Shown here one piece after another: positions 30,771 to 43,833 of a DNA stretch of 51,592 nt. This DNA comes from Verrucomicrobiota bacterium JB024 (GTDB taxonomy: Bacteria; Verrucomicrobiota; Verrucomicrobiia; Opitutales; Cerasicoccaceae). Under the pieces are notes generated by a model that made no database searches, was not told the origin of the DNA, and worked only from the letters and a program-made list of their open reading frames with translations. Position numbers and translations under genes: made by a program. The stretch is taken from positions 1-51,592 of the forward strand of contig JAUTCS010000004.1 of NCBI GenBank assembly GCA_030673825.1, written 5' to 3'. The stretch's first letter is position 1, and each line of letters opens with the position of its first letter.

Positions 30771-31691
30771 CTAATGCGTAGCGATGGAGTGGGGCGGAGT
30801 TAACCGCTCTTTAATCTGCTCCTGGGCGTGAATGGTTGCCCAAAACAGTTCCGGGGTGCTGGCCTCCTGTTCGTTCAGCAAAGGCAAATCTTCGTTCGTG
30901 CCGATGGCCCCCAGTGCTTGAATGGCTTTGAGCTTGATCGCGTCTGAGCCGGGGTGACGGATTTGGTCCCGGACGTAGGGGAGCATATCAGTTAGCCGAA
31001 GTTCAGCAATGACTTGCAGTGCACATGCCTGATTGTATTCGGGAAGATTTGGAGTATCGATTAGGACCTCGATCTGATCTTCAAGGTATTTGCTGCCGAC
31101 CAGTTCCGGGTGACGGGAGTGTAGGTAGGCACCCGCGAGTAGGGCGGTGCCCTGGAGGTTGGCTTGATTTTTCTGGAGGGCGATATCCAGCAACTGACGG
31201 AGCTGTTCAGGATTGGCGGGGTGCCCAAGACTGATCAATTGATCGAGCCGGGTTATCGAAGCCCGCAGGGCGAAATCTTTTTGGGCAATGGACTGGGCCG
31301 GTTCGAGGATAATAGTGTTGGTCTGCTCAAGGATTTCGGACGGATCAGCAACGGATTTCACCCATCGGTCGAAAGCCAGATTTTGGAGTTCGATGGCTTC
31401 CTGGCTTGAGGGGGAATCAATTGCCCGACGAATGAGGGCTTGATAAAAATCGACTAATTGAGAGGAGGGCGGCATCGTCTGAAGCAGTAATATCCGTTCT
31501 TTAGTTGTCGTGGCATTAGCGAAGGCCGTTTGGAGTGTCTCAACGTTTTCCTGATTCAAGTCCTTGAGTGGAGTTGTCATTTGAGGTTGAGGCGTCTGTT
31601 GATGTGGTCGGTTGAGGAAAATCAACCCGAAAATAAAAAGGACCAGTAGTGAGTTGACGGCAGAAAGAATAATCAGTGATCGGCGGCTCAT
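30771..31691 (-). CDS. Membrane-anchored HEAT-like solenoid protein
   Basis: A 306-residue protein with an N-terminal membrane segment (LIILSAVNSLLVLFIFGLIF) and an all-helical body. The last 150 residues have the helix-pair rhythm of HEAT repeats (YNQACALQVIAELRLTDMLP, IKLKAIQALGAIGTNEDLPL). It is similar in order and phrasing to the protein at 36763-37764 (QKDFALRASI against IRDYALQHLS; ACALQVIAEL against ASALQVLSRF), so the two are paralogues. It diverges from the surface-protein operon across an AT-rich 180-base region and may share its regulation. Likely a scaffold facing the periplasm; no substrate can be named. Confidence 0.75.
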   Translation of the reverse strand: MSRRSLIILSAVNSLLVLFIFGLIFLNRPHQQTPQPQMTTPLKDLNQENVETLQTAFANATTTKERILLLQTMPPSSQLVDFYQALIRRAIDSPSSQEAIELQNLAFDRWVKSVADPSEILEQTNTIILEPAQSIAQKDFALRASITRLDQLISLGHPANPEQLRQLLDIALQKNQANLQGTALLAGAYLHSRHPELVGSKYLEDQIEVLIDTPNLPEYNQACALQVIAELRLTDMLPYVRDQIRHPGSDAIKLKAIQALGAIGTNEDLPLLNEQEASTPELFWATIHAQEQIKERLTPPHSIATH

Positions 31692-31871: not shown

Positions 31872-32069
31872 ATGAAACCCCGTTTACTCCCTGTTTTAAT
31901 TCCTTTTCTGGTTGCTCCTTCCATTGCTCTCGCCGGAGAGCAATCTAAGGGAACCCTCATCATGATGAGTTCCCTTGGCGGCTGGGTGCTGCTTACCTGC
32001 GGATACATGTTTGTCCGCGAGGTTCAGCGTGCCCGGCAGGATCGCAATAAGAAGCAAGACGATCAATAA
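31872..32069 (+). CDS. Small exported single-span membrane protein
   Basis: A 65-residue protein starting at ATG 31872 (a GTG nine codons upstream is also in frame). It has a signal peptide (PRLLPVLIPFLVAPSIALAG), a second hydrophobic segment (LIMMSSLGGWVLLTCGYMFV) and a highly charged tail (REVQRARQDRNKKQDDQ). It is 20 bases upstream of the giant gene and probably the first gene of the operon. I do not recognise the family; size and place suggest a small partner or assembly factor for the secreted protein that follows. Confidence 0.6.
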   Translation: MKPRLLPVLIPFLVAPSIALAGEQSKGTLIMMSSLGGWVLLTCGYMFVREVQRARQDRNKKQDDQ

Positions 32070-32089
32070 CTCAACGCGAGAGGCAAGCC

Positions 32090-35000
32090 ATGCATGCGTT
32101 GAGACTGCGTTCGTCAAGTTACGTCTGTTGGCGTAAATTATGTTTGTTTGTCGTACTGAATGTCCACTTGATGGTATTTGGGGATAATGCGAATTTGCCT
32201 TATGCTACGGACTTTGAGCAGGAGGAAGGATACCAGCTTGGCTTGGTTGAAAGCGGAGAGGGTTGGTACTTGGAATCAGGTTTGGAGGGCGAAATCCTCT
32301 CTGGCGGTGCCTCAGGGGCGCAATCGCTCAGCTTGGGCGGGGGCCAATGGATAACCTTTGACGCGAATAGTTCGGCCCCCTTGACGGTGACTTGGGTCGA
32401 TCTTTTTATGAAGCCCGTCTTCGTCGAGGTGGGCGAATTGCCGGAAGTCATCAGCACCGAGCAATCGGCGGTGACTGGCTTTGTAAAGATTGACACTCAG
32501 GGCGAAGTTTACGCGGTGAATGGCGATGGGCTTGGCGGCGGTGCCTGGGTTCCCTCCGGACAGCGCACAGCGTTGACGGACAATATTGCCCAGGATTGGA
32601 TTCGGCTGACCTACCGCATCGATTATGCCACCAAAACGTGGGACCTCTTTGTTGACGGACAGATGGCGTTGGCGGACTTGGGATTTTTAGACAACACACT
32701 GAACGCTTTTTCCCAATTTGCGATTCGTTCGGATGCCGAAGACCCGACAGCCTTTGACTTTTTCTATGCCGGAGAGGGAAACCCACTGTTTGTTGATACC
32801 TCGAACGACGGCTTGCCCGATGCCTGGGCGGTCTCTCAGGGACTGAACCCCAGTGCCAACAACCGCTATGGTGACGATGACATGGACGGGTTAGATAACC
32901 TGGCCGAATACATGCTTTCGACAAGAACGGATAACGCCGACACGGACGGAGACGGAGTCAGCGATGGTATGGAGTATGCGTTAGGTGAGGACCCACTGAC
33001 AGCCGACAACTATGCTTTGAACGTCTTGCCGTTTGCGGACGGATTTGAAACCTACGATGTTGGTTTGCCACCGTTGCTCAATGGCTGGGCGGTGGCCGGA
33101 GATACCGTCGAAGTGCAGCAGGGCGATGTGTTCAGCGGGCAGGCGGCATTGAGTGTCGGAGAAGGAGCTACGGTTTCTAACCATTACAATGGTTCCGGCA
33201 ATGCGGTGGTTTGGGTGGATGTCTATCTCAAACCGACGCCTTCGCATGAGACGCCCGAAGTGCCAGAAGATGCCAGCGTCGTTTATTATTTCAATAAGGA
33301 AGGCCAGCCCGTTGCCTTCGACGGCTTGGGCAGCGGATCGGGATTTTGGACCTTGCTGGATGCGGCGACTTCTGCGGATTGGCGGCGAGTAACGGTGAAG
33401 GCAAATTATCAGGCCCAGAGCTACGATATCTACGTGGACGGAGAGCGTCTCGGGGTCGGTCTTGGGTTTGCACATACGCAGCCATTTCTCTCTCGTTTCG
33501 AGGTGCGTGAATCTACCATGGTGGACGATGTCTCCGTCACGACGACCGAACCGGCAGGATTAGACGACGACCGGGACGGCTTGGACAATGCGACGGAAGC
33601 TTCTTTAGGGACAAGCTCCGTGGCCTTCGATAGTGACCAAGACGGGCTAGCGGACTCCTTGGAAGCGCTTTGGGGACTCGATCCGATGGTGGCCGACACC
33701 TCCGTTGCTATACCGACTGAAATTGAGCCGGGTGTCTTCTATTGGGCGACGGCATTCTCCGGCTCTGAAGGCTACGTCAACGGGGCTTTGGGTGGCCAGC
33801 ATGACTGGGCCGCGTCGGGCACGGTCAATGTGAGCGAGGAAGAGGATGTCAGCCTGGAGCAGGCCTCCATGGACGAGCAGTCCTTTGAGCGACTCTTCGG
33901 TGTCGGTGAAAACCGCCGTATCTGGATTACTTTCCGGGCCAAGCTGCTCGTTGGTCCGATGCCGGATGTCAGCGAACTGTCCGAACCGGCGGTTGCGTTG
34001 ATGGGCTTTACCGACCGCGACACGATGGTGGTGTGGGACGAAGCTTCTCAAACGTGGGACGACTTTGCCACGGTTGCTGATCCCACCGAGTGGAACGATT
34101 ACGCTATTTATTTGGATTACGTGAACCAGCAGTGGAGCATTTGCCAAAACGGTGTCCTGCTCGCAAGCGGTTTACCCTTCAAGGACAAGAACCTGACCGT
34201 CTTCTCTCGTTTCAAGGCGCTTCAGGCCCGTTTGGATGAAGAGACCGATCCTCAACATGATCCACTTCAGGCCTCTTTCGACGATGTCACCATTTCCAAT
34301 GCCGAGCCGACCGGTCTTGACTACGACGGTGACGGACTGGATAACGATCTAGAACGCCAACTGGGCTCTGACATTCTCCTCGCCGATACCGATGGCGACG
34401 GGCTCGATGACGCTTGGGAGTATCAGTATGGGTTTAATCTATTGGTCCGTAATGCAAATACCGATGCTGATGGCGATGGCTTGAAGCTTTTGGTCGAGTA
34501 TGAATATGGCACGAACCCATCCGATTCAGACACCGACCATGATGGTTTAAATGACACCATGGAGATCGCATTTTTACGCGATCCAAATAGCAATGAGGAC
34601 GCTGTTCTGGTTGAAAGTGCAGATCCTTGGGTTGTGAAGAATATATCCAATAGCATCGGACTGTCGGTGCGTGTTTATGATGCCATATGGATGGCTTCCA
34701 ATGGGACAGGATTTACCACGCATGGCAGCGACAATGTAAGTTTTGCCTATCAGCAGATTGCCGGTGATTTTGAGTATAGTACAAAAGTGGAATTCCCGGT
34801 CGGTGCTCCAAACACTTGGATGGCTGGGATTATGGTCCGGGAGGATGTAGATGCACGGTCTGCGATGGCTGGAATTCTGATTACGCCGAACGGGACCGTA
34901 TATCAGCAAGACCGGGCCTACTATAAGGGAAAAGTGGGCCGGGTTGGTGACAGTATCATCAAGTCCGCAGTGCCTGGATGGCTCAAAATAAAAAGGCAAG

Positions 35001-36760
35001 GTGACGAAATTTCAGTTTGGTTGTCATCGGATGGCCAACACTGGGATAAGTTTTATAACACAACGTTGGAGCTTTCGGATTCGCTTCTGTGTGGCATGGT
35101 TGTCACATCGGGCGATGCAGAGACAATCGCCGGAGTTGCCTTCTCTGATCACAATTTCGACTACGATGCCGACTCTGATGGGATTCTTGCCTCTGAGGAG
35201 ATTCTCGCGGGGACATCGGATTCTACTGCGGACTCGGACGGGGATCAAATCAGCGACCTTAGGGAGCAGACCGAATTTTACACCGATCCCACTCAAAATG
35301 ATTTGGATGCCCCCATTGTTGTTACCTCCGTCCGTGGGCGTAGTTTGACTGTGGCTTCCGGTTCTTGGGTTGGATATGGGAACGGCAGGTATTGTGATTC
35401 CATTTGCGGAGAACTGGCATGGCAGACCGATCTGTCGGAATCCGGTGTATATCAACTGACAGTGAGTGCTGGTTTTGCTGCGAACGACACCTATGATCCG
35501 GTATTTTCCATTGATGTCGAAGTGGATGGCGAGTTTATCAAAACCTTAAAATTTGATATAGATGACGATTTCGCTCACGATGGGGCTGTCTTGCTTCCTT
35601 GGCTGGCAAGTGGTGAACACGACATCCGCTTGGTCGTGAAAAACACCTACCTCTTCCGGAAAATTTGGGTGAATGATGTAAAATTGGAAGCTATCGGCGG
35701 TGAGGATGCGGATAATGATGGGATCGCTGATTGGGTGAATCGGCTCCTGCTGAGAAACAATGGCGTCGATTCTACAACAATCGAAAGCCGGACTTCTCCT
35801 TTATGCTTAACTGGTATTTCACGCTATCCTGGCTTTACCGAGGTTGATGGAAACGTTGTGGTCCCTGGCCCGAATTATAAATGGCTGAATGAGTGTACTC
35901 TCAATGAAAACGGAGAGACCGTATTCACCATCTCGTTTGAAAATGAAGCACTAACCTCTGAGGTCTCTGCCAGTTGGATGCCTACGAATGTTTTCAATGA
36001 GGCTTCAGACATATACGTCAGGAAGGGAGATTCACTAAAGCTCATGGCCTTGCCCGACGGTAAGGATGCCAACCAGACTGCCCAGATTCATATCGGAGGT
36101 GAGTTGGTATACGAGGGGTTGGCCAGTGGATACGGTGTTTATGAATTCAATGAGGCCGGAGAGTATACCGTTAATGGGATTTATTCCCCCGCCTCAGGTT
36201 CTCAAACAGCTAGTGTCAAGGTTATCGTTGTGGACGCGGCTTTTGCGCCAAGCCCGCTTGCAGTGGTCGACCAGTCGCGTAAATGGAAGTCCAGCGATTT
36301 GCCTGCTGAGTCCGTCGTTGAATCTGATGCCCGGATGATTTTCGAGAACGCTTCTGCTTCTGATTTCAACATCAGGACTGATGCGAGCAGGGACCGTTAT
36401 GTTTGGGCTCGTCTCGGTGAGGATGGCCCCGTGCTTGATCGGCAAGTGATTCGAGGCACTCAAGTGGCTACTTTGGCTAATACTGGATTGTTTGCCGAAC
36501 AGACCTATGAGGACGGTGTTGTTTGTGTTCTGATGCCCGTCGTCGTGGATAATCTAGAAGACGATTTCAGGCTCACGCTTGATATCTTTATTGGCGGTGT
36601 TCTCTTTGAAGACGGAACCACGTTTATGGAGCTTAGTCCGTCTGATTTTGATGAGACCGGCGTTGCCTTTGTCCGCTTCCTAAAATCGCCAGGAAAATCA
36701 GCGACTTGCCATACGGCAAGGGCCTATCAAGACAACTTCTATATTGGCAAAAACAAATAA
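32090..36760 (+). CDS. Giant secreted protein with LamG-like and calcium (TSP3-type) repeats
   Basis: A 1556-residue exported protein (signal peptide CLFVVLNVHLMVFGDNA). Three concanavalin/LamG-like domains alternate with acidic DxDxDG repeats of the thrombospondin type 3 kind: lectin-like at about 38-235, 310-480 and 550-740; calcium repeats near 245-300 (DTDGDGVSDG), 490-530 (DSDQDGLADS), 743-835 (DTDGDGLDDAW), 1025-1070 and 1205 (DADNDGIADW). A fourth lectin-like domain (DUF1349-like, about 845-1020) and carbohydrate-binding-like domains (1085-1200, 1290-1370) follow. There is no membrane anchor or sorting tail that I recognise. It is probably a rod-like, calcium-stabilised adhesin or glycan binder on the cell surface. 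Its 3' half is richer in A/T than its 5' half. The next gene starts 2 bases later. Confidence 0.85.
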   Translation: MHALRLRSSSYVCWRKLCLFVVLNVHLMVFGDNANLPYATDFEQEEGYQLGLVESGEGWYLESGLEGEILSGGASGAQSLSLGGGQWITFDANSSAPLTVTWVDLFMKPVFVEVGELPEVISTEQSAVTGFVKIDTQGEVYAVNGDGLGGGAWVPSGQRTALTDNIAQDWIRLTYRIDYATKTWDLFVDGQMALADLGFLDNTLNAFSQFAIRSDAEDPTAFDFFYAGEGNPLFVDTSNDGLPDAWAVSQGLNPSANNRYGDDDMDGLDNLAEYMLSTRTDNADTDGDGVSDGMEYALGEDPLTADNYALNVLPFADGFETYDVGLPPLLNGWAVAGDTVEVQQGDVFSGQAALSVGEGATVSNHYNGSGNAVVWVDVYLKPTPSHETPEVPEDASVVYYFNKEGQPVAFDGLGSGSGFWTLLDAATSADWRRVTVKANYQAQSYDIYVDGERLGVGLGFAHTQPFLSRFEVRESTMVDDVSVTTTEPAGLDDDRDGLDNATEASLGTSSVAFDSDQDGLADSLEALWGLDPMVADTSVAIPTEIEPGVFYWATAFSGSEGYVNGALGGQHDWAASGTVNVSEEEDVSLEQASMDEQSFERLFGVGENRRIWITFRAKLLVGPMPDVSELSEPAVALMGFTDRDTMVVWDEASQTWDDFATVADPTEWNDYAIYLDYVNQQWSICQNGVLLASGLPFKDKNLTVFSRFKALQARLDEETDPQHDPLQASFDDVTISNAEPTGLDYDGDGLDNDLERQLGSDILLADTDGDGLDDAWEYQYGFNLLVRNANTDADGDGLKLLVEYEYGTNPSDSDTDHDGLNDTMEIAFLRDPNSNEDAVLVESADPWVVKNISNSIGLSVRVYDAIWMASNGTGFTTHGSDNVSFAYQQIAGDFEYSTKVEFPVGAPNTWMAGIMVREDVDARSAMAGILITPNGTVYQQDRAYYKGKVGRVGDSIIKSAVPGWLKIKRQGDEISVWLSSDGQHWDKFYNTTLELSDSLLCGMVVTSGDAETIAGVAFSDHNFDYDADSDGILASEEILAGTSDSTADSDGDQISDLREQTEFYTDPTQNDLDAPIVVTSVRGRSLTVASGSWVGYGNGRYCDSICGELAWQTDLSESGVYQLTVSAGFAANDTYDPVFSIDVEVDGEFIKTLKFDIDDDFAHDGAVLLPWLASGEHDIRLVVKNTYLFRKIWVNDVKLEAIGGEDADNDGIADWVNRLLLRNNGVDSTTIESRTSPLCLTGISRYPGFTEVDGNVVVPGPNYKWLNECTLNENGETVFTISFENEALTSEVSASWMPTNVFNEASDIYVRKGDSLKLMALPDGKDANQTAQIHIGGELVYEGLASGYGVYEFNEAGEYTVNGIYSPASGSQTASVKVIVVDAAFAPSPLAVVDQSRKWKSSDLPAESVVESDARMIFENASASDFNIRTDASRDRYVWARLGEDGPVLDRQVIRGTQVATLANTGLFAEQTYEDGVVCVLMPVVVDNLEDDFRLTLDIFIGGVLFEDGTTFMELSPSDFDETGVAFVRFLKSPGKSATCHTARAYQDNFYIGKNK

Positions 36761-36762
36761 CG

Positions 36763-37764
36763 ATGCCTCGTTGGTTCCCATATATAGCTCTTGCAGGGGG
36801 AGCACTTATTCTGGTTACAGGATATGTGCTGTGGAGGCCCAGTAGCCGCGTCGAAGAAACGGAGTCTCTTTTTGACCGTAAGGATTTGTCGAGTGAAAGA
36901 AATGATTTGCAGCTTTTGACAGCGACTCCTCCTTATGAGGATTCCTTAGCGGATGACGCATCAGAGCCCGATGAGCCGTCTAGTGACCAAGAGGTAAATA
37001 TGATGGGCAAGCAGAGCACCACGCGGTTGCCTGAAATGTTGGTATCCGTTATTGGCGAGATTGATCTGACGGTGCCAGAGCGCCTGAACAATCTTCACCA
37101 GCTTGTACTTTCCTCGGATGAAATCGATCAGTTATACAGCTTTCTTGCCGATGATGGGAATTTTACTGGACTCAGTGAGGAGCGCTTAATGTGGCTCAAG
37201 AATGATATCATGACCTACTTGAGAGACCATGATGAAAGCGACGAGCGCTACCTTAACGCCCTTAGCTCACTGTTTTTAGAGCCTGATCAGAATATTGTCA
37301 TTCGTGACTATGCTCTTCAGCACTTAAGTGTTTGGGCCGAGCAGGGTGATGGAGCAGAAAAAGTTATTCCGCTGTTGTGGAAAGGCTCACAAGAGACGGA
37401 TGGGACTATCGCTGGAACATCGCTTCTTGCTCTTGAAAGACTGGACCGAGCAGGCTTGTTCCAGGATCCTGATGAGGACATCGCTGAGATGGCTTTTGCC
37501 GTCGTGTCTGACCCTAGCTTCTCTACGGCGTCGAGGGCTTCGGCTTTGCAGGTCTTGTCACGCTTTAATGCGCAATCTGCCCAATTGAGGGCTGTTGAGA
37601 TATTACAAGCGTCATCGCCTCAGGACGCCATGTTGCAGGTTTCCGCTATCGGGGTTTTGAAAAATGCGGGGACGGATTCGGAGTACCAGCAACTGCTTAG
37701 CGATTTCATGACTCACCCCGACACGCGAATTCGAAGAGCCGCTAACCTTGCGCTGAAAAAATGA
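36763..37764 (+). CDS. Membrane-anchored HEAT-like protein (paralogue of the 30771 gene)
   Basis: A 333-residue protein starting two bases after the giant gene stop (MPRWFPYIALAGGALILVTG, an N-terminal anchor). An acidic, disordered linker (about 35-85) precedes a helical solenoid: DYALQHLSVWAEQGDGAEKV, GTSLLALERL, ASRASALQVLSRF and VSAIGVLKNAG, ending IRRAANLALKK. The phrase order matches the minus-strand gene at 30771-31691. Its stop overlaps the start of the next gene (ATGA), so translation is coupled. It may scaffold the giant protein or the protease in the periplasm. Confidence 0.78.
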   Translation: MPRWFPYIALAGGALILVTGYVLWRPSSRVEETESLFDRKDLSSERNDLQLLTATPPYEDSLADDASEPDEPSSDQEVNMMGKQSTTRLPEMLVSVIGEIDLTVPERLNNLHQLVLSSDEIDQLYSFLADDGNFTGLSEERLMWLKNDIMTYLRDHDESDERYLNALSSLFLEPDQNIVIRDYALQHLSVWAEQGDGAEKVIPLLWKGSQETDGTIAGTSLLALERLDRAGLFQDPDEDIAEMAFAVVSDPSFSTASRASALQVLSRFNAQSAQLRAVEILQASSPQDAMLQVSAIGVLKNAGTDSEYQQLLSDFMTHPDTRIRRAANLALKK

Positions 37765-40154
37765 ATATTAGCAGGTATATATTCCTTTCATGTACATTTT
37801 GGTATGCTGCCATCGCAGTGGCTTTGGCGTCCGATCCTGGCAATGTGCCCCCCGATGATTCTGACTGTGAGTCACATACACGAAAGCAGTTCTTTAATTC
37901 ATACACTACCCAATGGTATCAGGGGGAATATGTGAATACAACATACTGCGCTGATGGAAGCGTAAATGAGGTATTCTATAAATTTCATTTGTGTTGGGTT
38001 CTTATCGAAAAGGAACAAACCTACTATACCGGTGGAACCAATTGCCCATCTGATAGTGCTTGGGTCGCCACAGGGGAGACCAAACGTGGTGCGGAAGTTG
38101 GGTGGCCTCAGACGAGGGCTGTTACTGATAACGGATGCTCAACAGAACGTGAGGACGACGACGACGATGGTAAGACATCGGGTGGCGGAGGCAATGACGA
38201 TTGCGATGGCGATGGTATTCCGAATAGTATAGACGCAACGCCTGGTTGTGATGATGACGATGATGATCCCTCTGAGTGTTATACGCTCAGTGAAACAAAT
38301 CGAGACGCATCTCAAGACAATAGCTGTGTTACCTACTACGAGCCGGATTATATTCCTCCCGCAGATGACGCAAGTACATTGCCAAATCCAAATGGACTTA
38401 ATATTATCTATGAGAGCATCGGAGAGGTTATACCGCGTCCAGGCTTTTCTCAATTCGGCGAAATCCCGGATGATCCAGAAAATGTTGTTACATACCTGAA
38501 GAAAGTGTACACCCGTGCCCGTGATGGCGGAAATGGATGCTTCGAGGACGGTGGTACCGTATATGGAAAAACTACCTATGAGTATGATACTTCCTCACTT
38601 GAGCGTTGCACCAGCTACGAGGGCTATGATTATACATGGTATAAATCAGGTGAAACTATCGATTCTGGGGAAACTGACACGTCTAAGTGGACAACGACTC
38701 AATTTACCTACGGAGATAATAAGACATTTAACGTTAAGTACTCATATGAATTGACTAATTCCTTTACGACTTCCCAATTTCGTCAGTATGCGGAGGGTGT
38801 AATGCCTGATTTTTCAGGTAAGTATCCATATGCATCTTCTAATTCTCTAGGTATATCAGCATCTTACGATCTTGATGGTTCCTCAACCATCTACTATAGA
38901 AAAGTTAAATTTAAATTCAAATGGGGGTCAAATGTAACTGCCGACCAGCGCCATCCGGTTGTATACTTTGTTGTATTCATTCCTGAAGATGATCCAGATA
39001 CCGCAACCGATGAAAGTGACAATTTTCAGATAATATATTCAAAAACTATAACCTGGGACGGTGCCTCATCTGAATCTCCTATGTCATATGAGTTGGATCC
39101 CGGCGCGATTGACTCTAGCAAGGATGGTGTTTATCGTTTGCTATATGTAGATTTGATTTCACCTGCCGGTGGCGCGAACAACGATCCTATTAATCTACCG
39201 ATTGATGGTGGAGATGGAACGGGCGCAGTTACAAGCGGAGCGAATGAATTCACCTTTTCTGCGGCAAATCCAGGAGTACTAACGATCCCATTCCAGGCAT
39301 CAGTGTCTGGTCCTCTTACTGCGCAGCAAATTAGCAGTCTGGTGACATTTACCGTCGAGAACATTGGGCAGGCGCCGACTTGGGATTCGGCGAATCCTGG
39401 AGGGCTGGCAAGTGTCCAAAACGGCAGTTTGACGGCCAAGGCGACTTTTACAGGCCTACCAGCGAATAATACAGATTTCGGAACGAAAACAGTTTCAGTG
39501 AAATTGGGAAGTCAAGTTGCAGAGGAGGCCGAGATTGAGGTGTTTTTCCGGCGTGATGAGAAGAATCATCCAGGGCCTAAAAACGGTATTACACCAAATT
39601 GGCTTTATTACTGGCTGCAAACGCTTACACCCCTAGGCCCAAATCCTAAATTCAACTATGACGTGAGCTCATACTATGATCCTAGTACCAATGCTATCTT
39701 TCTGAGTGATGGCGATAGGGGTAGCTACGATGCTCCTTATGGTAAGAATAATCCGTTAGAAGGTATCGACAACTTTGCTTGGACGGTATTTCATGAAAGT
39801 CAGCACTATTTAGATTGGGTGAATTATTGGGATGTCGAAAATGATGGTATTACTAATTGGCAGAACGCCTATGGTGGGCTAGATCCTAATGACAATAAAG
39901 ATCCACATGAAACTTCAAGGGGCGGAAGCGACTATTTACCTAACTATGTTGAAGATGTGAATCTTAATCAAGATTACGACCAAGGAGATTTATATGATTG
40001 GTCTAATGGCTTAACTGGTAATCCTCCTTCTACGATAATTGATGATGCTGAAGATTACACCTGTCAGCGTCACACAAGTGTCGTCGGTGATCATTCCCTC
40101 GACTGGGCGGATCCTGGAATGCAACATAATACACTTGATGTATATCATGACTAA
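37761..40154 (+). CDS. Secreted putative zinc metalloprotease (HESQH) with acidic repeats
   Basis: A 797-residue exported protein (signal peptide YIFLSCTFWYAAIAVALASD). The N-terminal third has many cysteines and a polyaspartate region near 130-172 with one calcium-type repeat (DCDGDGIPNS). The middle is beta-rich. The C-terminal part has FHESQHYLDWVNYW at residues 677-690, that is an HExxH zincin motif with H678, E679 and H682, followed by acidic, D/N-rich segments that may bind calcium. A third zinc ligand cannot be fixed without a model, so activity is a proposal. The start overlaps the previous stop by 4 bases and its stop overlaps the next gene by 8. Codon use is markedly AT-rich. Confidence 0.72.
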   Translation: MNISRYIFLSCTFWYAAIAVALASDPGNVPPDDSDCESHTRKQFFNSYTTQWYQGEYVNTTYCADGSVNEVFYKFHLCWVLIEKEQTYYTGGTNCPSDSAWVATGETKRGAEVGWPQTRAVTDNGCSTEREDDDDDGKTSGGGGNDDCDGDGIPNSIDATPGCDDDDDDPSECYTLSETNRDASQDNSCVTYYEPDYIPPADDASTLPNPNGLNIIYESIGEVIPRPGFSQFGEIPDDPENVVTYLKKVYTRARDGGNGCFEDGGTVYGKTTYEYDTSSLERCTSYEGYDYTWYKSGETIDSGETDTSKWTTTQFTYGDNKTFNVKYSYELTNSFTTSQFRQYAEGVMPDFSGKYPYASSNSLGISASYDLDGSSTIYYRKVKFKFKWGSNVTADQRHPVVYFVVFIPEDDPDTATDESDNFQIIYSKTITWDGASSESPMSYELDPGAIDSSKDGVYRLLYVDLISPAGGANNDPINLPIDGGDGTGAVTSGANEFTFSAANPGVLTIPFQASVSGPLTAQQISSLVTFTVENIGQAPTWDSANPGGLASVQNGSLTAKATFTGLPANNTDFGTKTVSVKLGSQVAEEAEIEVFFRRDEKNHPGPKNGITPNWLYYWLQTLTPLGPNPKFNYDVSSYYDPSTNAIFLSDGDRGSYDAPYGKNNPLEGIDNFAWTVFHESQHYLDWVNYWDVENDGITNWQNAYGGLDPNDNKDPHETSRGGSDYLPNYVEDVNLNQDYDQGDLYDWSNGLTGNPPSTIIDDAEDYTCQRHTSVVGDHSLDWADPGMQHNTLDVYHD

Positions 40155-41058
40155 TAATTTTTATGCATTGTGCCTAGTCGGCCTACTTTGTTTTTTTGGG
40201 GTTGCTACAGCTAAGCCCATTGATTTAGTGGAAGCCGATCAGGTTATGCCGATTCTCGAAAAATTGCGCATAAAAGCAGTTAAGAATGAGACTCTTAGTG
40301 AAGGTGATCTGCTATACATGGATAATATCTTGAGAGGTGGAAGCCCTTACACTGTTGCTCATGTTTCATGGATAATAGAAATAGCTGGTGAGTCTGCTGC
40401 TTCACTCAAAGATAGCCTAGATGTGTCTCGACATAGAGGCTTGGGGTTCGCCGATGCTCAGCTAGCCCTCGCTCAATATGCGATTGACTCAGTCGGCATG
40501 CCTAGCGAAAAGCGTGTTAATGGATTGTTGGTTTTGTCGCAGACTGCCGACAATTATCTTAAATTAGAAATTGCTAAAAGATTATTATTGACTAGCGATT
40601 ACAGGGATGATGGCAAGTCTCTTGTCGGTCAGATAGATACAAGCAATAGCCCAATCCTGAGGTATCAGCTTATGCAGGTAGTGGCTGATTACGATTTGGA
40701 TAGTGGCATTGCGGGAATAGCAGAATACGCTCCGGTAACGGATAATTCTTATTTTTCATTTAATGATGACATATCTAGTTCAGGTGGAATTAGGTTTAGC
40801 AGTATCCTTGATGGTGTGACCTTGTATTCAAGGGATAGAATTTGGGAAAAAAATGAGGACCATGAGGGAGAAAATGGTGCGCCATTGGAGCCCAAAACGG
40901 TTGCTGTCAGTAAGCGGATTGCACTGGACGATGGTGGGGCTGTCGGGCCAATAAACAAAGATGATGCTTTGAGCGATGATAGCTATATATATATAGTTAT
41001 GGTAGTTTTATTATCGGTAATTGTGATTGTGATTTTAGTGTTGCGTAAAAATAGGTAG
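40147..41058 (+). CDS. Exported helical protein with C-terminal membrane anchor
   Basis: A 303-residue protein. It has a signal peptide (FYALCLVGLLCFFGVATAKP), a helical body of about 200 residues (ADAQLALAQYAIDSVGMPSE, VNGLLVLSQTADNYLKLEIA) with a solenoid feel, an acidic linker, and a terminal membrane span ending in basic residues (YIYIVMVVLLSVIVIVILVL then RKNR). This topology (signal peptide, body, one span, short basic tail) resembles sortase-like or PEP-CTERM tails, but no sorting box is visible. It is the last of the four overlapping genes. I do not recognise the family. Confidence 0.68.
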   Translation: MTNNFYALCLVGLLCFFGVATAKPIDLVEADQVMPILEKLRIKAVKNETLSEGDLLYMDNILRGGSPYTVAHVSWIIEIAGESAASLKDSLDVSRHRGLGFADAQLALAQYAIDSVGMPSEKRVNGLLVLSQTADNYLKLEIAKRLLLTSDYRDDGKSLVGQIDTSNSPILRYQLMQVVADYDLDSGIAGIAEYAPVTDNSYFSFNDDISSSGGIRFSSILDGVTLYSRDRIWEKNEDHEGENGAPLEPKTVAVSKRIALDDGGAVGPINKDDALSDDSYIYIVMVVLLSVIVIVILVLRKNR

Positions 41059-41238
41059 GCCGCGTGGACAGGAGATTTAGCTTATAATTATATGTGCTGT
41101 ATCGCGTGAAATGCATGCGCATATGTTTGCAATGGATTCGCACTACTTTCCGAGGATATGCCAGTGTGTGTGGTGACGTGATTTGTGTTAAGCCCCCATT
41201 TGTGGATGCAAGTTGCCAGCTTAAATTTTGATTCTTTA

Positions 41239-41895
41239 ATGATGCTAAATATTATAATGTTCGGTACTGTTCTAACCTGTTTTATTTCTTTAACATCTTA
41301 CGCTGGTTTGGCTTGGGAAAATGTTGTGTCTAAAGAGGACCTAGGCGTTCGAGATGAAGTGGCAATTGCTCAATTTGCATTTAAAAATACTGGTCCAGGT
41401 TATGTTGTCATCGACGAAATACGCACAAGTTGCGGTTGTACGACTGCTGAACTGGAGAAGATGGAATATGCACCTGGTGAGTCAGGGACGATCGAGGCTG
41501 TATTTAATGTAGGAAATAGGCATGGTTTTCAGCGTAAGAAAATATTTGTTTACTTTGCTGGTGATAAAAAACCTATTGAGCTGACAATGGAGGTGAATAT
41601 CCCGACTGTATTTGTTGTGAATCCGAGTATAGTCTATTGGAAGAAAGGTGATGCCGCTGCACCTCAGACCATTAAATTGATTAATGAGCAAAAAGACGCG
41701 ATCAATATCACTTCAATAAAATACAACTCGGATTATTTTGATTGCGTACTGGAGCCCGTAGAAGTCGGAAGGAAGTATCAGATTCACGTTCGCCCCCTGA
41801 GTACGAATCTAAAGATACGAGCAAATATTGAGATTAATACTGATTGGCCTAAAGATAAACCTGTATCCTACACGATTACGGCATATGTGAAATAG
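41239..41895 (+). CDS. Exported DUF1573-domain protein
   Basis: A 218-residue protein from ATG 41239 (MMLNIIMFGTVLTCFISLTS, signal peptide); a GTG at 41185 would add 18 residues. Residues 25-120 contain the DUF1573 signature: IAQFAFKNTGPGYVVIDEIR, then TSCGCTTAEL and YAPGESGTIEAVFN. A second immunoglobulin-like domain follows (IVYWKKGD, TIKLINEQ). DUF1573 proteins are common, poorly characterised envelope proteins in Bacteroidota and Verrucomicrobiota. The gap of 180 bases from the operon, with a TATAAT at about 41081, allows separate transcription. Confidence 0.82.
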   Translation: MMLNIIMFGTVLTCFISLTSYAGLAWENVVSKEDLGVRDEVAIAQFAFKNTGPGYVVIDEIRTSCGCTTAELEKMEYAPGESGTIEAVFNVGNRHGFQRKKIFVYFAGDKKPIELTMEVNIPTVFVVNPSIVYWKKGDAAAPQTIKLINEQKDAINITSIKYNSDYFDCVLEPVEVGRKYQIHVRPLSTNLKIRANIEINTDWPKDKPVSYTITAYVK

Positions 41896-42397: not shown

Positions 42398-43627
42398 CTA
42401 GGTAAGCGTCTTACGAAGCTTTTGGATGCGTGATCGAATCATCACATCTATCGATTGCTGAGTCTCATTGTCTGGGGCGCAGCAAAGCTCTTCCAAGGAA
42501 TCGGCGAACTGCAAAGTTTGTTTGCGGGCTTGGTTGGGTGAAAAACCAATGCTCTCCCAGTATTTTTCCCAATCTCTAAGCCGAAGCTCAGCCGGCAGAT
42601 CGGTCTTTCCGATTTTCATAGCCATTTTAGGTGAGAGCTCGGAATAACAGGCAGTACTGACGAGGTCGTAAAGGGGTGCCAGACGGACCGAATAGGGTTC
42701 TACTTCAGGGGAATAGAGCAGCGAAAAGTTTTTGCCGTGGGCGTCGTTATTGCCGATCAGGAAATTGAAGAGCACTGCGTTGAACAGTTGGATGAGGTCG
42801 CGAGCGGGGCTGGCGGAGGCTGTGCGTACCAGTTCAAAGCACTCTGCCAGTCCCGGGCCTCCTTCCGATTGATATTTGATGCGCGTCGGGATACCCAGTG
42901 CCTGGCAGAAATCCTCCTGATGAAGCCGGACAACCATACTGTTTTGCAGGATGCGGTCGTAGCGGGTGATCAAGAGGCAGCTGTGGGGACCGAACTGGCG
43001 GGGGGCGGCCTCGCAGGTGGGCAAGCCGGTTTTAGCGGCGAGATGGAGGCAGTAGGCCTCATTTTCCACCAGGCCGGGGAAGCGTTCTAATTCGGGTTTT
43101 AAGATATGGGTGCTCGGCGATTCATGGAGCGGAATCGCAAAGCCGTTTTCATTGACGCGCAGAGCGACTTTGTTTTGCGCCCCGGCCAAGGAAAGGCGGA
43201 TTTCAGCCTTACCCGCCAGTAACGGGCGTTGTGGCAATTGATCCAGTAGGGCGATCAATTCTCCTTCGGAAATAGGCTCGTAGCTATTCGTTGCCGGAAC
43301 GGGTTTTTCCCCGGGCGACATGAGGGAGACGGACCCCGCGCATTCACCCCCAATTTCCCGCAGCATCGCGAAATCGTTTCGAGGAGTGATACCAAGATTC
43401 TTGGCGATGATTTCACGGTTGTATTCTTCGGGCAATAATCCTCCGAAGAAACCGACGCATTCCCGTTCGCTGAATTTCTCCGATCTCAGTGGAAGCGACT
43501 GGGAGAGTGGGCGGGCTTTAGGATTATTGAGCCAAGAATCGCTATAGGCGAAGGATAGGTTTCCTTCGCGGTTTTGGGCAAGGATACCGACCTCACTTCC
43601 CTGAAGGTAGACGAGGAGTTGCTTCAT
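42398..43627 (-). CDS. hipA: HipA-family serine/threonine kinase toxin
   Basis: A 409-residue kinase from ATG 43627 (MKQLLVYLQGSEVGILAQNR). In known systems HipA phosphorylates glutamyl-tRNA synthetase and causes growth arrest and persistence; HipB blocks it and represses the operon. Landmarks: the N-terminal subdomain (SLPLRSEKFSERE, FFGGLLPEE), the SLAGAQNKVAL loop with the autophosphorylated serine, a HILKPE lysine, the catalytic NNDAHGKNFSLLY and APLYDLVST metal site. All look intact. The start overlaps the hipB stop (ATGA). The operon is at the right flank of the ssrA island and may be part of the mobile region. Confidence 0.92.
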   Translation of the reverse strand: MKQLLVYLQGSEVGILAQNREGNLSFAYSDSWLNNPKARPLSQSLPLRSEKFSERECVGFFGGLLPEEYNREIIAKNLGITPRNDFAMLREIGGECAGSVSLMSPGEKPVPATNSYEPISEGELIALLDQLPQRPLLAGKAEIRLSLAGAQNKVALRVNENGFAIPLHESPSTHILKPELERFPGLVENEAYCLHLAAKTGLPTCEAAPRQFGPHSCLLITRYDRILQNSMVVRLHQEDFCQALGIPTRIKYQSEGGPGLAECFELVRTASASPARDLIQLFNAVLFNFLIGNNDAHGKNFSLLYSPEVEPYSVRLAPLYDLVSTACYSELSPKMAMKIGKTDLPAELRLRDWEKYWESIGFSPNQARKQTLQFADSLEELCCAPDNETQQSIDVMIRSRIQKLRKTLT

Positions 43628-43833
43628 GGCTGCTGAATCAGTTCGACCTGGATTCCCAGACAACGTGCGACATGCAGGGCCTTGCCGATTTGACTGGTTG
43701 GTTTGCCATTTTCCAGATCCGAGATGAAGCGAGGGGCGGTGTTGGCCGTCATGGCCAACTCCTGTTGAGTGAGTCCTTGCGCTTTACGCGCTCTGCGGAT
43801 TGCTTGGCCGAATGTTTTTGGGTCCATACTCAT
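43624..43833 (-). CDS. hipB: HipB-type antitoxin, XRE family
   Basis: A 69-residue XRE repressor (KTFGQAIRRARKAQGLTQQE, then PRFISDLENGKPTSQ) that binds HipA and the operon operators. The second methionine at 43827 is an alternative start. Translation is coupled to hipA by the 4-base overlap. Three palindromic operators lie upstream; the nearest is five bases from the start codon, so binding would also mask the ribosome site. Confidence 0.93.
   Translation of the reverse strand: MSMDPKTFGQAIRRARKAQGLTQQELAMTANTAPRFISDLENGKPTSQIGKALHVARCLGIQVELIQQP

What the first reader, a model, noticed from the sequence alone, without database searches (positions are those of the whole stretch)
32090..41058. 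Coupled operon for a giant calcium-repeat surface protein, HEAT-like anchor, HESQH protease and tail-anchored solenoid
Seen: four genes with 2-base spacing or overlaps of 4 and 8 bases, all exported or anchored, preceded by a small membrane protein, all within an AT-rich island. Each has a topology suited to a surface apparatus: signal peptide plus calcium repeats and lectin-like domains (1556 residues), anchored helical solenoid, secreted HExxH protein with polyaspartate, signal peptide plus C-terminal span. I know no named system with this gene order. Inference: the protease could mature or release the giant protein, and the two anchored solenoids could hold it at the cell surface; with lectin-like domains it may bind glycans or other cells.
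Basis: partly seen in the sequence, partly recalled or inferred. Interest (0 to 1): 0.82.

Follow-up and report, generated by a model that had tools for sequence, protein, structure and literature searches.

The report
Verrucomicrobial toxin operon with swapped effector
A tightly packed bacterial operon looks like a surface-deployed weapon kit: a shared module (small membrane protein, giant calcium-repeat protein, membrane-anchored helper), followed by an exchangeable protease-like effector and an anchored protein that probably protects the producer from it.

Summary
In detail: 2-base spacing, overlaps of 4 and 8 bases, all products exported or anchored, in an AT-rich island (GC 0.48 against 0.60-0.63).

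The meaning changes. Gene 1's C-terminal module occurs in 25 of 372 genomes of the order and 36 of 288 drawn from the phylum. Of 67 such giants with room, 44 are followed by a relative of gene 2; of 56 with 3 kb, 32 have an Rhs/YD-repeat gene within 5 kb. Genes 1 and 2 are thus the constant part of an Rhs-type polymorphic-toxin operon; in this order the 65-residue protein upstream often belongs too.

Gene 3 sits in the effector slot. Its middle domain carries other tips elsewhere and its HExxH tip domain sits on other N-termini.

Gene 4 sits in the immunity slot. In seven other genomes 13 proteins of the same topology share one C-terminal anchor, and their variable domains co-vary perfectly with the tip of the gene before them: 8 of 8 pairs with related tips, 0 of 58 others. 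Gene 4's own anchor is not detectably of that sequence family, so its role is by analogy.

Toxicity, delivery and immunity are inferred. New variant of a known kind; interest 0.6.

The parts
31872..32069 (+). 65-aa small membrane protein, first gene of the constant part
   Evidence: tblastn relatives upstream of giants (best E 2e-11). A profile made from these hits lies just before 7 of 20 giants (window included) with a complete 5' end and >=300 bp upstream: 7 of 13 in the order, 0 of 7 outside
32090..36760 (+). Gene 1: giant exported protein with TSP3-type calcium repeats
35627..36757 (+). Conserved C-terminal module of gene 1, modelled as a chain of Ig-like beta domains
   Evidence: 25 of 372 order genomes, 36 of 288 phylum genomes; AlphaFold2 pLDDT 91; generic Ig-chain matches
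36763..37764 (+). Gene 2: N-terminally anchored HEAT-like protein, constant partner of the giant
   Evidence: Family within 300 bp downstream of 44 of 67 giants; window gene 2 scores E 5e-52 against the other 18 order members and E 5e-51 against a profile of 25 members from outside the order
37761..40154 (+). Gene 3: exported protein in the effector slot
38244..39209 (+). Middle 'core' domain of gene 3 (residues 162-483), found with other tips elsewhere
   Evidence: 4 of 372 order genomes
39129..40151 (+). Conserved pre-tip part plus HExxH tip of gene 3
   Evidence: 4 of 372 order genomes; alignment A5
39792..39806 (+). HESQH, residues 678-682 of gene 3
   Evidence: HExxH in 4 of 4 rows of A5
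40147..41058 (+). Gene 4: exported, C-terminally anchored protein, probable immunity protein
   Evidence: Place, 8-base overlap and topology; co-variation shown for analogous tailed proteins, not for gene 4 itself
40870..41055 (+). C-terminal anchor of gene 4
   Evidence: Span plus basic end. Its match to profile A6 is by construction: left out of training it scores E 33, below a control
30771..31691 (-). Second gene-2-family gene, divergent and upstream
   Evidence: E 1.4e-21 and 5.8e-19 with profiles not trained on it; the genome's only other match at E<=0.01
41185..41895 (+). DUF1573 protein; a relative has the same place after a tailed gene in G076
   Evidence: Pfam E 1.8e-23; 38.9% identity to L009 9196-9846

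Best explanation
The operon is a Sec-exported polymorphic-toxin system. The constant part is the small membrane protein, the giant TSP3 protein with its Ig-like C-terminal module, and the inner-membrane HEAT-like protein; together they assemble and display the weapon. Gene 3 is the exchangeable effector, here not an Rhs protein but a Cys-rich core with a C-terminal metallopeptidase-type (HExxH) tip. Gene 4 is its immunity protein: exported, held in the inner membrane by a C-terminal span and facing the periplasm, where it would neutralise the tip during export or on arrival from sister cells. Shown: gene order, slot equivalence with Rhs loci, tip swapping, and tip-partner co-variation in the analogous tailed proteins. 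Inferred: enzymatic activity, toxicity, surface display, neutralisation, and that gene 4 behaves like the tailed proteins elsewhere.
For: Giant module followed by gene 2 family in 44 of 67, and by Rhs/YD genes within 5 kb in 32 of 56. Outside the order, which trained neither profile: of 31 giants with >=3 kb, 14 have gene 2, 21 Rhs/YD (18 by profile), 25 at least one. Rhs core over NCBIfam cut-off in 7 of 10 effector ends scanned. In G076 two copies are 89% identical over 293 residues and share nothing detectable after that; a third copy starts at the core without the signal region (L010 1-423; open frame 144 aa). The window core is shared with effectors bearing three other tips (G076 twice, G294), and the tip domain sits on other N-termini in G063, G125 and G276. 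13 tailed partners in 7 other genomes: of 12 compared, 8 of 8 pairs with related tips have related partner domains and 0 of 58 other pairs do (window rows set aside). In G056 an open tailed gene stands beside a broken core fragment, as expected of immunity genes. Nearest slot-for-slot case: L077, with small protein, giant, gene 2 relative, 391-aa HEEEH protein and 289-aa protein with an N-terminal span.
Against: No toxicity or immunity data. Gene 4's anchor is not detectably of the shared sequence family when left out of the profile (E 33, below a control at 0.71), and the window tip and partner have no related pair in the co-variation test, so gene 4's role rests on place, overlap and topology. 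Among window, G063, G125 and G276, whose tip domains are related, the four neighbours are unrelated to each other by BLAST. The gene 3 tip model failed (pLDDT 42), so a peptidase fold is not shown. In none of the other 371 order genomes searched do clear relatives of gene 1's module and of gene 3 share a contig; G063's tip contig is only 5.3 kb. 7 of 56 giants with room have neither gene 2 nor Rhs.
Confidence: 0.63

Rival explanations
1. Enzyme with its own foldase, chaperone or membrane dock: gene 3 is a secreted enzyme for feeding or surface remodelling, and the anchored partner helps it fold or holds it at the membrane.
For: Co-variation of tip and partner would fit a dedicated chaperone too; 8 of 13 tailed partners follow a C-terminal HExxH domain.
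Against: The same anchor also follows other tips (G076:C116, G294:C63, G133, G274); tips swap on near-identical N-termini; open partner beside a broken effector; the same slot holds Rhs proteins elsewhere.
Confidence: 0.22
2. One reading: the protease matures or releases the giant protein and two anchored solenoids hold it at the surface.
For: Tight coupling of the four genes; one HExxH effector each in L077 and L079 also lies behind a giant.
Against: Giants are more often followed by Rhs/YD genes; the related tip occurs in G125 and G276 with no giant module found, and in G063 on another contig; gene 4 is not of the gene 2 family.
Confidence: 0.1
3. Chance packing of unrelated surface genes in a horizontally acquired island.
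For: GC drop; patchy distribution of gene 3's domains.
Against: The gene 1-gene 2-effector order recurs in distant genomes.
Confidence: 0.04

Closest known systems
Sec/T2SS-route polymorphic toxins with RHS repeats (Zhang et al. 2012, PMC3482391)
   Same: Signal peptide, large constant part, variable C-terminal tip, adjacent immunity gene, standalone cassettes, HExxH toxin domains; HEAT proteins are in its table of immunity proteins (passages)
   Different: The window effector has no RHS repeats; a giant TSP3 protein and a HEAT-like anchored protein precede the effector; the immunity candidate is exported with a C-terminal anchor. No such partners in the passages I saw, which are a part of the paper
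Rhs effectors of type VI secretion
   Same: Tip polymorphism and immunity genes (recalled, and abstracts in listing)
   Different: The window genes have N-terminal export segments; so do most effector ORFs, though L072, L075, L077 and L078 show none at the threshold used. VgrG/PAAR partners were not searched for
Tc toxin (TcdB/TcaC) type
   Same: Signal peptide and RHS part (PMC3482391)
   Different: No SpvB or TcdB Pfam match at E<=0.001 in the 4 whole Rhs proteins scanned
CdiA/CdiI contact-dependent inhibition
   Same: Works alike: swappable tip plus cognate immunity protein (recalled; abstract)
   Different: No two-partner secretion domain matched in genes 1 or 3

Membership tests
Polymorphic toxin system (PMC3482391) | Constant N-terminal part with varying C-terminal domains | tested here: met
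   89% identical cores with unrelated ends in G076; N-terminal parts shared across tips. Shown on relatives of gene 3
Polymorphic toxin system (PMC3482391) | Standalone cassettes | tested here: met
   Core without signal region in G076 (L010); broken core fragment with open partner in G056. None in the window itself
Polymorphic toxin system (PMC3482391) | Cognate immunity gene next to the toxin | tested here: inconclusive
   Genetic signature met in the tailed classes (8 of 8 against 0 of 58); window gene 4 fits by place and topology only; no functional test
Polymorphic toxin system (PMC3482391) | Toxic activity of the tip | not testable with these tools
   HExxH conserved, nothing more
Rhs toxin | RHS/YD repeats and Rhs core in the effector | tested here: not met
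   No TIGR03696 match in the window genome (95% complete); no Pfam or NCBIfam match in gene 3
Tc toxin | SpvB/TcdB domains | tested here: not met
Shared C-terminal anchor family (defined here) | Window gene 4 found by a profile not trained on it | tested here: not met
   E 33, best control 0.71; the 12 others tested score E 2e-7 or better when left out
Gene 2 family (defined here) | Found by a profile not trained on it | tested here: met
   E 5e-52 and 5e-51
Known or candidate anti-phage defence proteins (PADLOC-DB 2.0.0) | Match to a model at E<=0.01 | tested here: not met
   0 of 5 window proteins

The most novel reading that the evidence does not exclude
The small protein, giant TSP3 protein and HEAT-like protein form a dedicated, undescribed deployment apparatus of Verrucomicrobiota for surface toxins, which accepts Rhs and non-Rhs effectors alike, together with a new class of exported immunity proteins set on C-terminal membrane anchors, many of them one shared modular anchor.
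Probability: 0.38. Interest if true: 0.8.

Novelty: new variant of a known kind. Interest (0 to 1): 0.6.

Why it matters
How signal-peptide Rhs toxins of two-membraned bacteria are displayed or leave the cell is, to my knowledge, poorly understood. A constant partner pair found across a phylum names candidate parts that can be deleted and tested. The tailed partners suggest that some immunity acts at the periplasmic face of the inner membrane and can be swapped onto a common anchor.

Tried and rejected
Scans of genome contigs: gene 3 alone found nothing, alignment A1 found 2 loci. AlphaFold2 on the gene 3 tip failed (pLDDT 42), so no fold search was made with it. The PDB fold search of the gene 1 module gave generic multi-Ig chains, TM-scores at most 0.31 in the 50 rows shown of 1685. 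PDB sequence search: for A3 a short aspergillopepsin II match (E 5e-5) and nitrosocyanin (E 0.003), taken as beta-sandwich noise; for A5 only chance-level matches, E 0.29 or worse. Gene 4 against gene 2: unrelated. The G276 order (TSP3 giant, N-anchored HEAT, TSP3 plus HELHH, tailed gene) first looked like the same four genes; G276 had no match to the gene 1 module and its HEAT protein is not in the gene 2 family (E 0.72), so it is an analogous order only. L086 gave no significant BLAST hit but matched by profile and was kept.

Corrected late: I had counted window gene 4 among 14 proteins with a shared anchor. The window tail was a row of the query alignment; left out, it scores E 33, below a control. 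The closest control, the 179-residue protein at L031 11832, reaches E 0.0004 in one run, so the border of that family is not sharp.

Circularity: the gene 2 profile was trained on the window and 18 order loci and the Rhs profile on 7 order loci, so the outside set is the fair test of adjacency; leave-one-out shows that gene 2 membership does not depend on training (19 of 19, E 1.7e-38 or better). No chance control of gene adjacency was computed.

Papers: of PMC3482391 I saw 12 of 72 and 12 of 29 passages; all other papers only as listings with the start of abstracts (two of these listings were empty and one search showed 15 of 195). That I found no description of this partner set rests on these seven searches of an open-access library.

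Full report
What is there. Five genes run on the + strand from 31872 to 41058, with 20 bases between the small protein and gene 1, then 2 bases, a 4-base overlap and an 8-base overlap. All five have an N-terminal hydrophobic segment and gene 4 also a C-terminal one. The stretch is AT-rich compared with both flanks. Genes 1 to 4 reach no Pfam or NCBIfam model over its cut-off, and the five proteins match no PADLOC model at E<=0.01.

Gene 1 and gene 2 are a constant pair. The last 377 residues of gene 1 match 25 of 372 genomes drawn from the order (35 match rows). A profile of 24 such modules (A3) matches 36 of 288 genomes drawn from the phylum (52 rows). I pulled 31 loci from the first search, and 37 of the 47 rows of the second that were neither the window nor G056; 10 rows were not pulled. 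With the window they hold 70 giants. Of 67 with at least 600 bp downstream, 44 have a gene-2-family gene within 300 bp: the window, 25 of 30 in the order, 18 of 36 outside. Of 56 with at least 3 kb, 32 have an Rhs/YD-repeat gene within 5 kb, 18 of them after gene 2 and 14 directly; 17 have gene 2 without Rhs in reach, the window among them (two others are masked); 7 have neither. The order loci trained the profiles, so the fair set is the 31 outside giants with room: 14 gene 2, 21 Rhs/YD, 25 at least one, 6 neither. Window gene 2 scores E 5e-51 against a profile built only from 25 outside members. NCBIfam confirms the Rhs core over cut-off in 7 of 10 effector ends. Tips of these include sub-threshold matches to Peptidase_M91 and phospholipase A2.

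The small protein often belongs too. Relatives of the 65-residue protein lie just before 7 of 20 giants (window included) with complete 5' ends and room, 7 of 13 in the order and 0 of 7 outside.

Gene 3 is in the effector slot. Its core domain is in 4 of 372 genomes and its tip domain in 4 of 372, and only the window genome has both. In G076 two cores 89% identical over 293 residues carry unrelated ends. The core also occurs in G294 with a third end, and in G056 in one copy cut by a contig end and one broken copy. The tip domain sits on TSP3 proteins in G125 and G276 and on a short protein in G063. HExxH is kept in 4 of 4 rows (HESQH, HENKH, HEAEH, HELHH). Before the motif, pairs are 39-51% identical; from it onwards 20-28%, as expected of a conserved pre-tip part and a fast-changing tip. 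The window genome has no Rhs core match, so here the constant pair appears to serve a non-Rhs effector. It has six secretin matches over cut-off, so an outer-membrane exit of type II kind is possible but not shown.

Gene 4 is in the immunity slot. A profile of six C-terminal tails (A6) found 14 matches in 8 of 372 genomes and 11 in 5 of 30 chosen genomes. The window tail was one of the six. Leave-one-out profiles find the 12 other tails tested at E 2e-7 or better, but the window tail only at E 33, below a control at 0.71. I therefore count 13 proteins in 7 genomes and treat gene 4 as alike in topology and place only. Upstream of the 13: eight follow an ORF ending in an HExxH domain (G276, G189, G294:C59, G056:C101, C39, C82, C8, G076:C126), of which that of G189 is a 128-residue ORF near a contig start; four follow other tips (G076:C116, G294:C63, G133, G274); one follows a broken core fragment. 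I compared the last 130 residues of the effectors (128 for G189) and the partner domains without signal and tail for the window and the 12 with an intact neighbour. Of 78 pairs, 8 have related tips and the same 8 have related partners; none of the other 70 has either. Without the window it is 8 and 58; with the window kept and G274 left out, which is identical to G133 in these parts, 6 and 60. Pairs inherited as blocks also give this pattern; what makes it telling is that flanking parts are shared across classes: effector N-terminal regions, an upstream ~290-residue protein (4 proteins, 6 of 6 pairs related) and the anchor.

Results against. Within the gene 3 tip family the neighbours of window, G063, G125 and G276 are unrelated. 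The window tip and partner have no close relatives, and the anchor test failed for gene 4, so their pairing is by analogy. No fold was obtained for the tip. No other order genome searched shows gene 1's module and gene 3 relatives on one contig. The closest slot-for-slot case is L077.

Mechanism. Export by Sec, display by the giant protein with help from the HEAT-like protein, damage by the tip, protection by gene 4 at the periplasmic face. Only the arrangement and the co-variation among relatives are shown; the rest is inference from how polymorphic toxins are described in PMC3482391 (passages).

Literature. Seven searches of the held library showed no description of this partner set (listings only, in part).

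Noticed in passing
window 30771-31691 (-): A second gene-2-family gene, divergent, without a giant beside it; the genome's only other match.
   Followed up: partly
window 41185-41895: DUF1573 protein after gene 4, with a 38.9% identical counterpart after the tailed gene in G076; weaker relatives in L079 and L132.
   Followed up: partly
L009, L013, L027, L031, L172-L176, L185-L187: Modular C-terminal anchor: often a Glu/Pro-rich linker, SSxWWLWL, membrane span, basic end; could be a sorting signal and not only an anchor.
   Followed up: partly
L012 6667-7629, L174 5753-6616, L175 4818-5678, L176 4906-5790: Related exported proteins of 286-320 residues directly before TSP3 proteins with different tips, a possible second constant partner.
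   Followed up: partly
G076 contigs C33, C34, C116: Contigs end inside near-identical core copies, suggesting an array of several cassettes broken up in assembly.
   Followed up: no
window 42398-43663 (-): HipA-type gene just beyond the AT-rich stretch.
   Followed up: no
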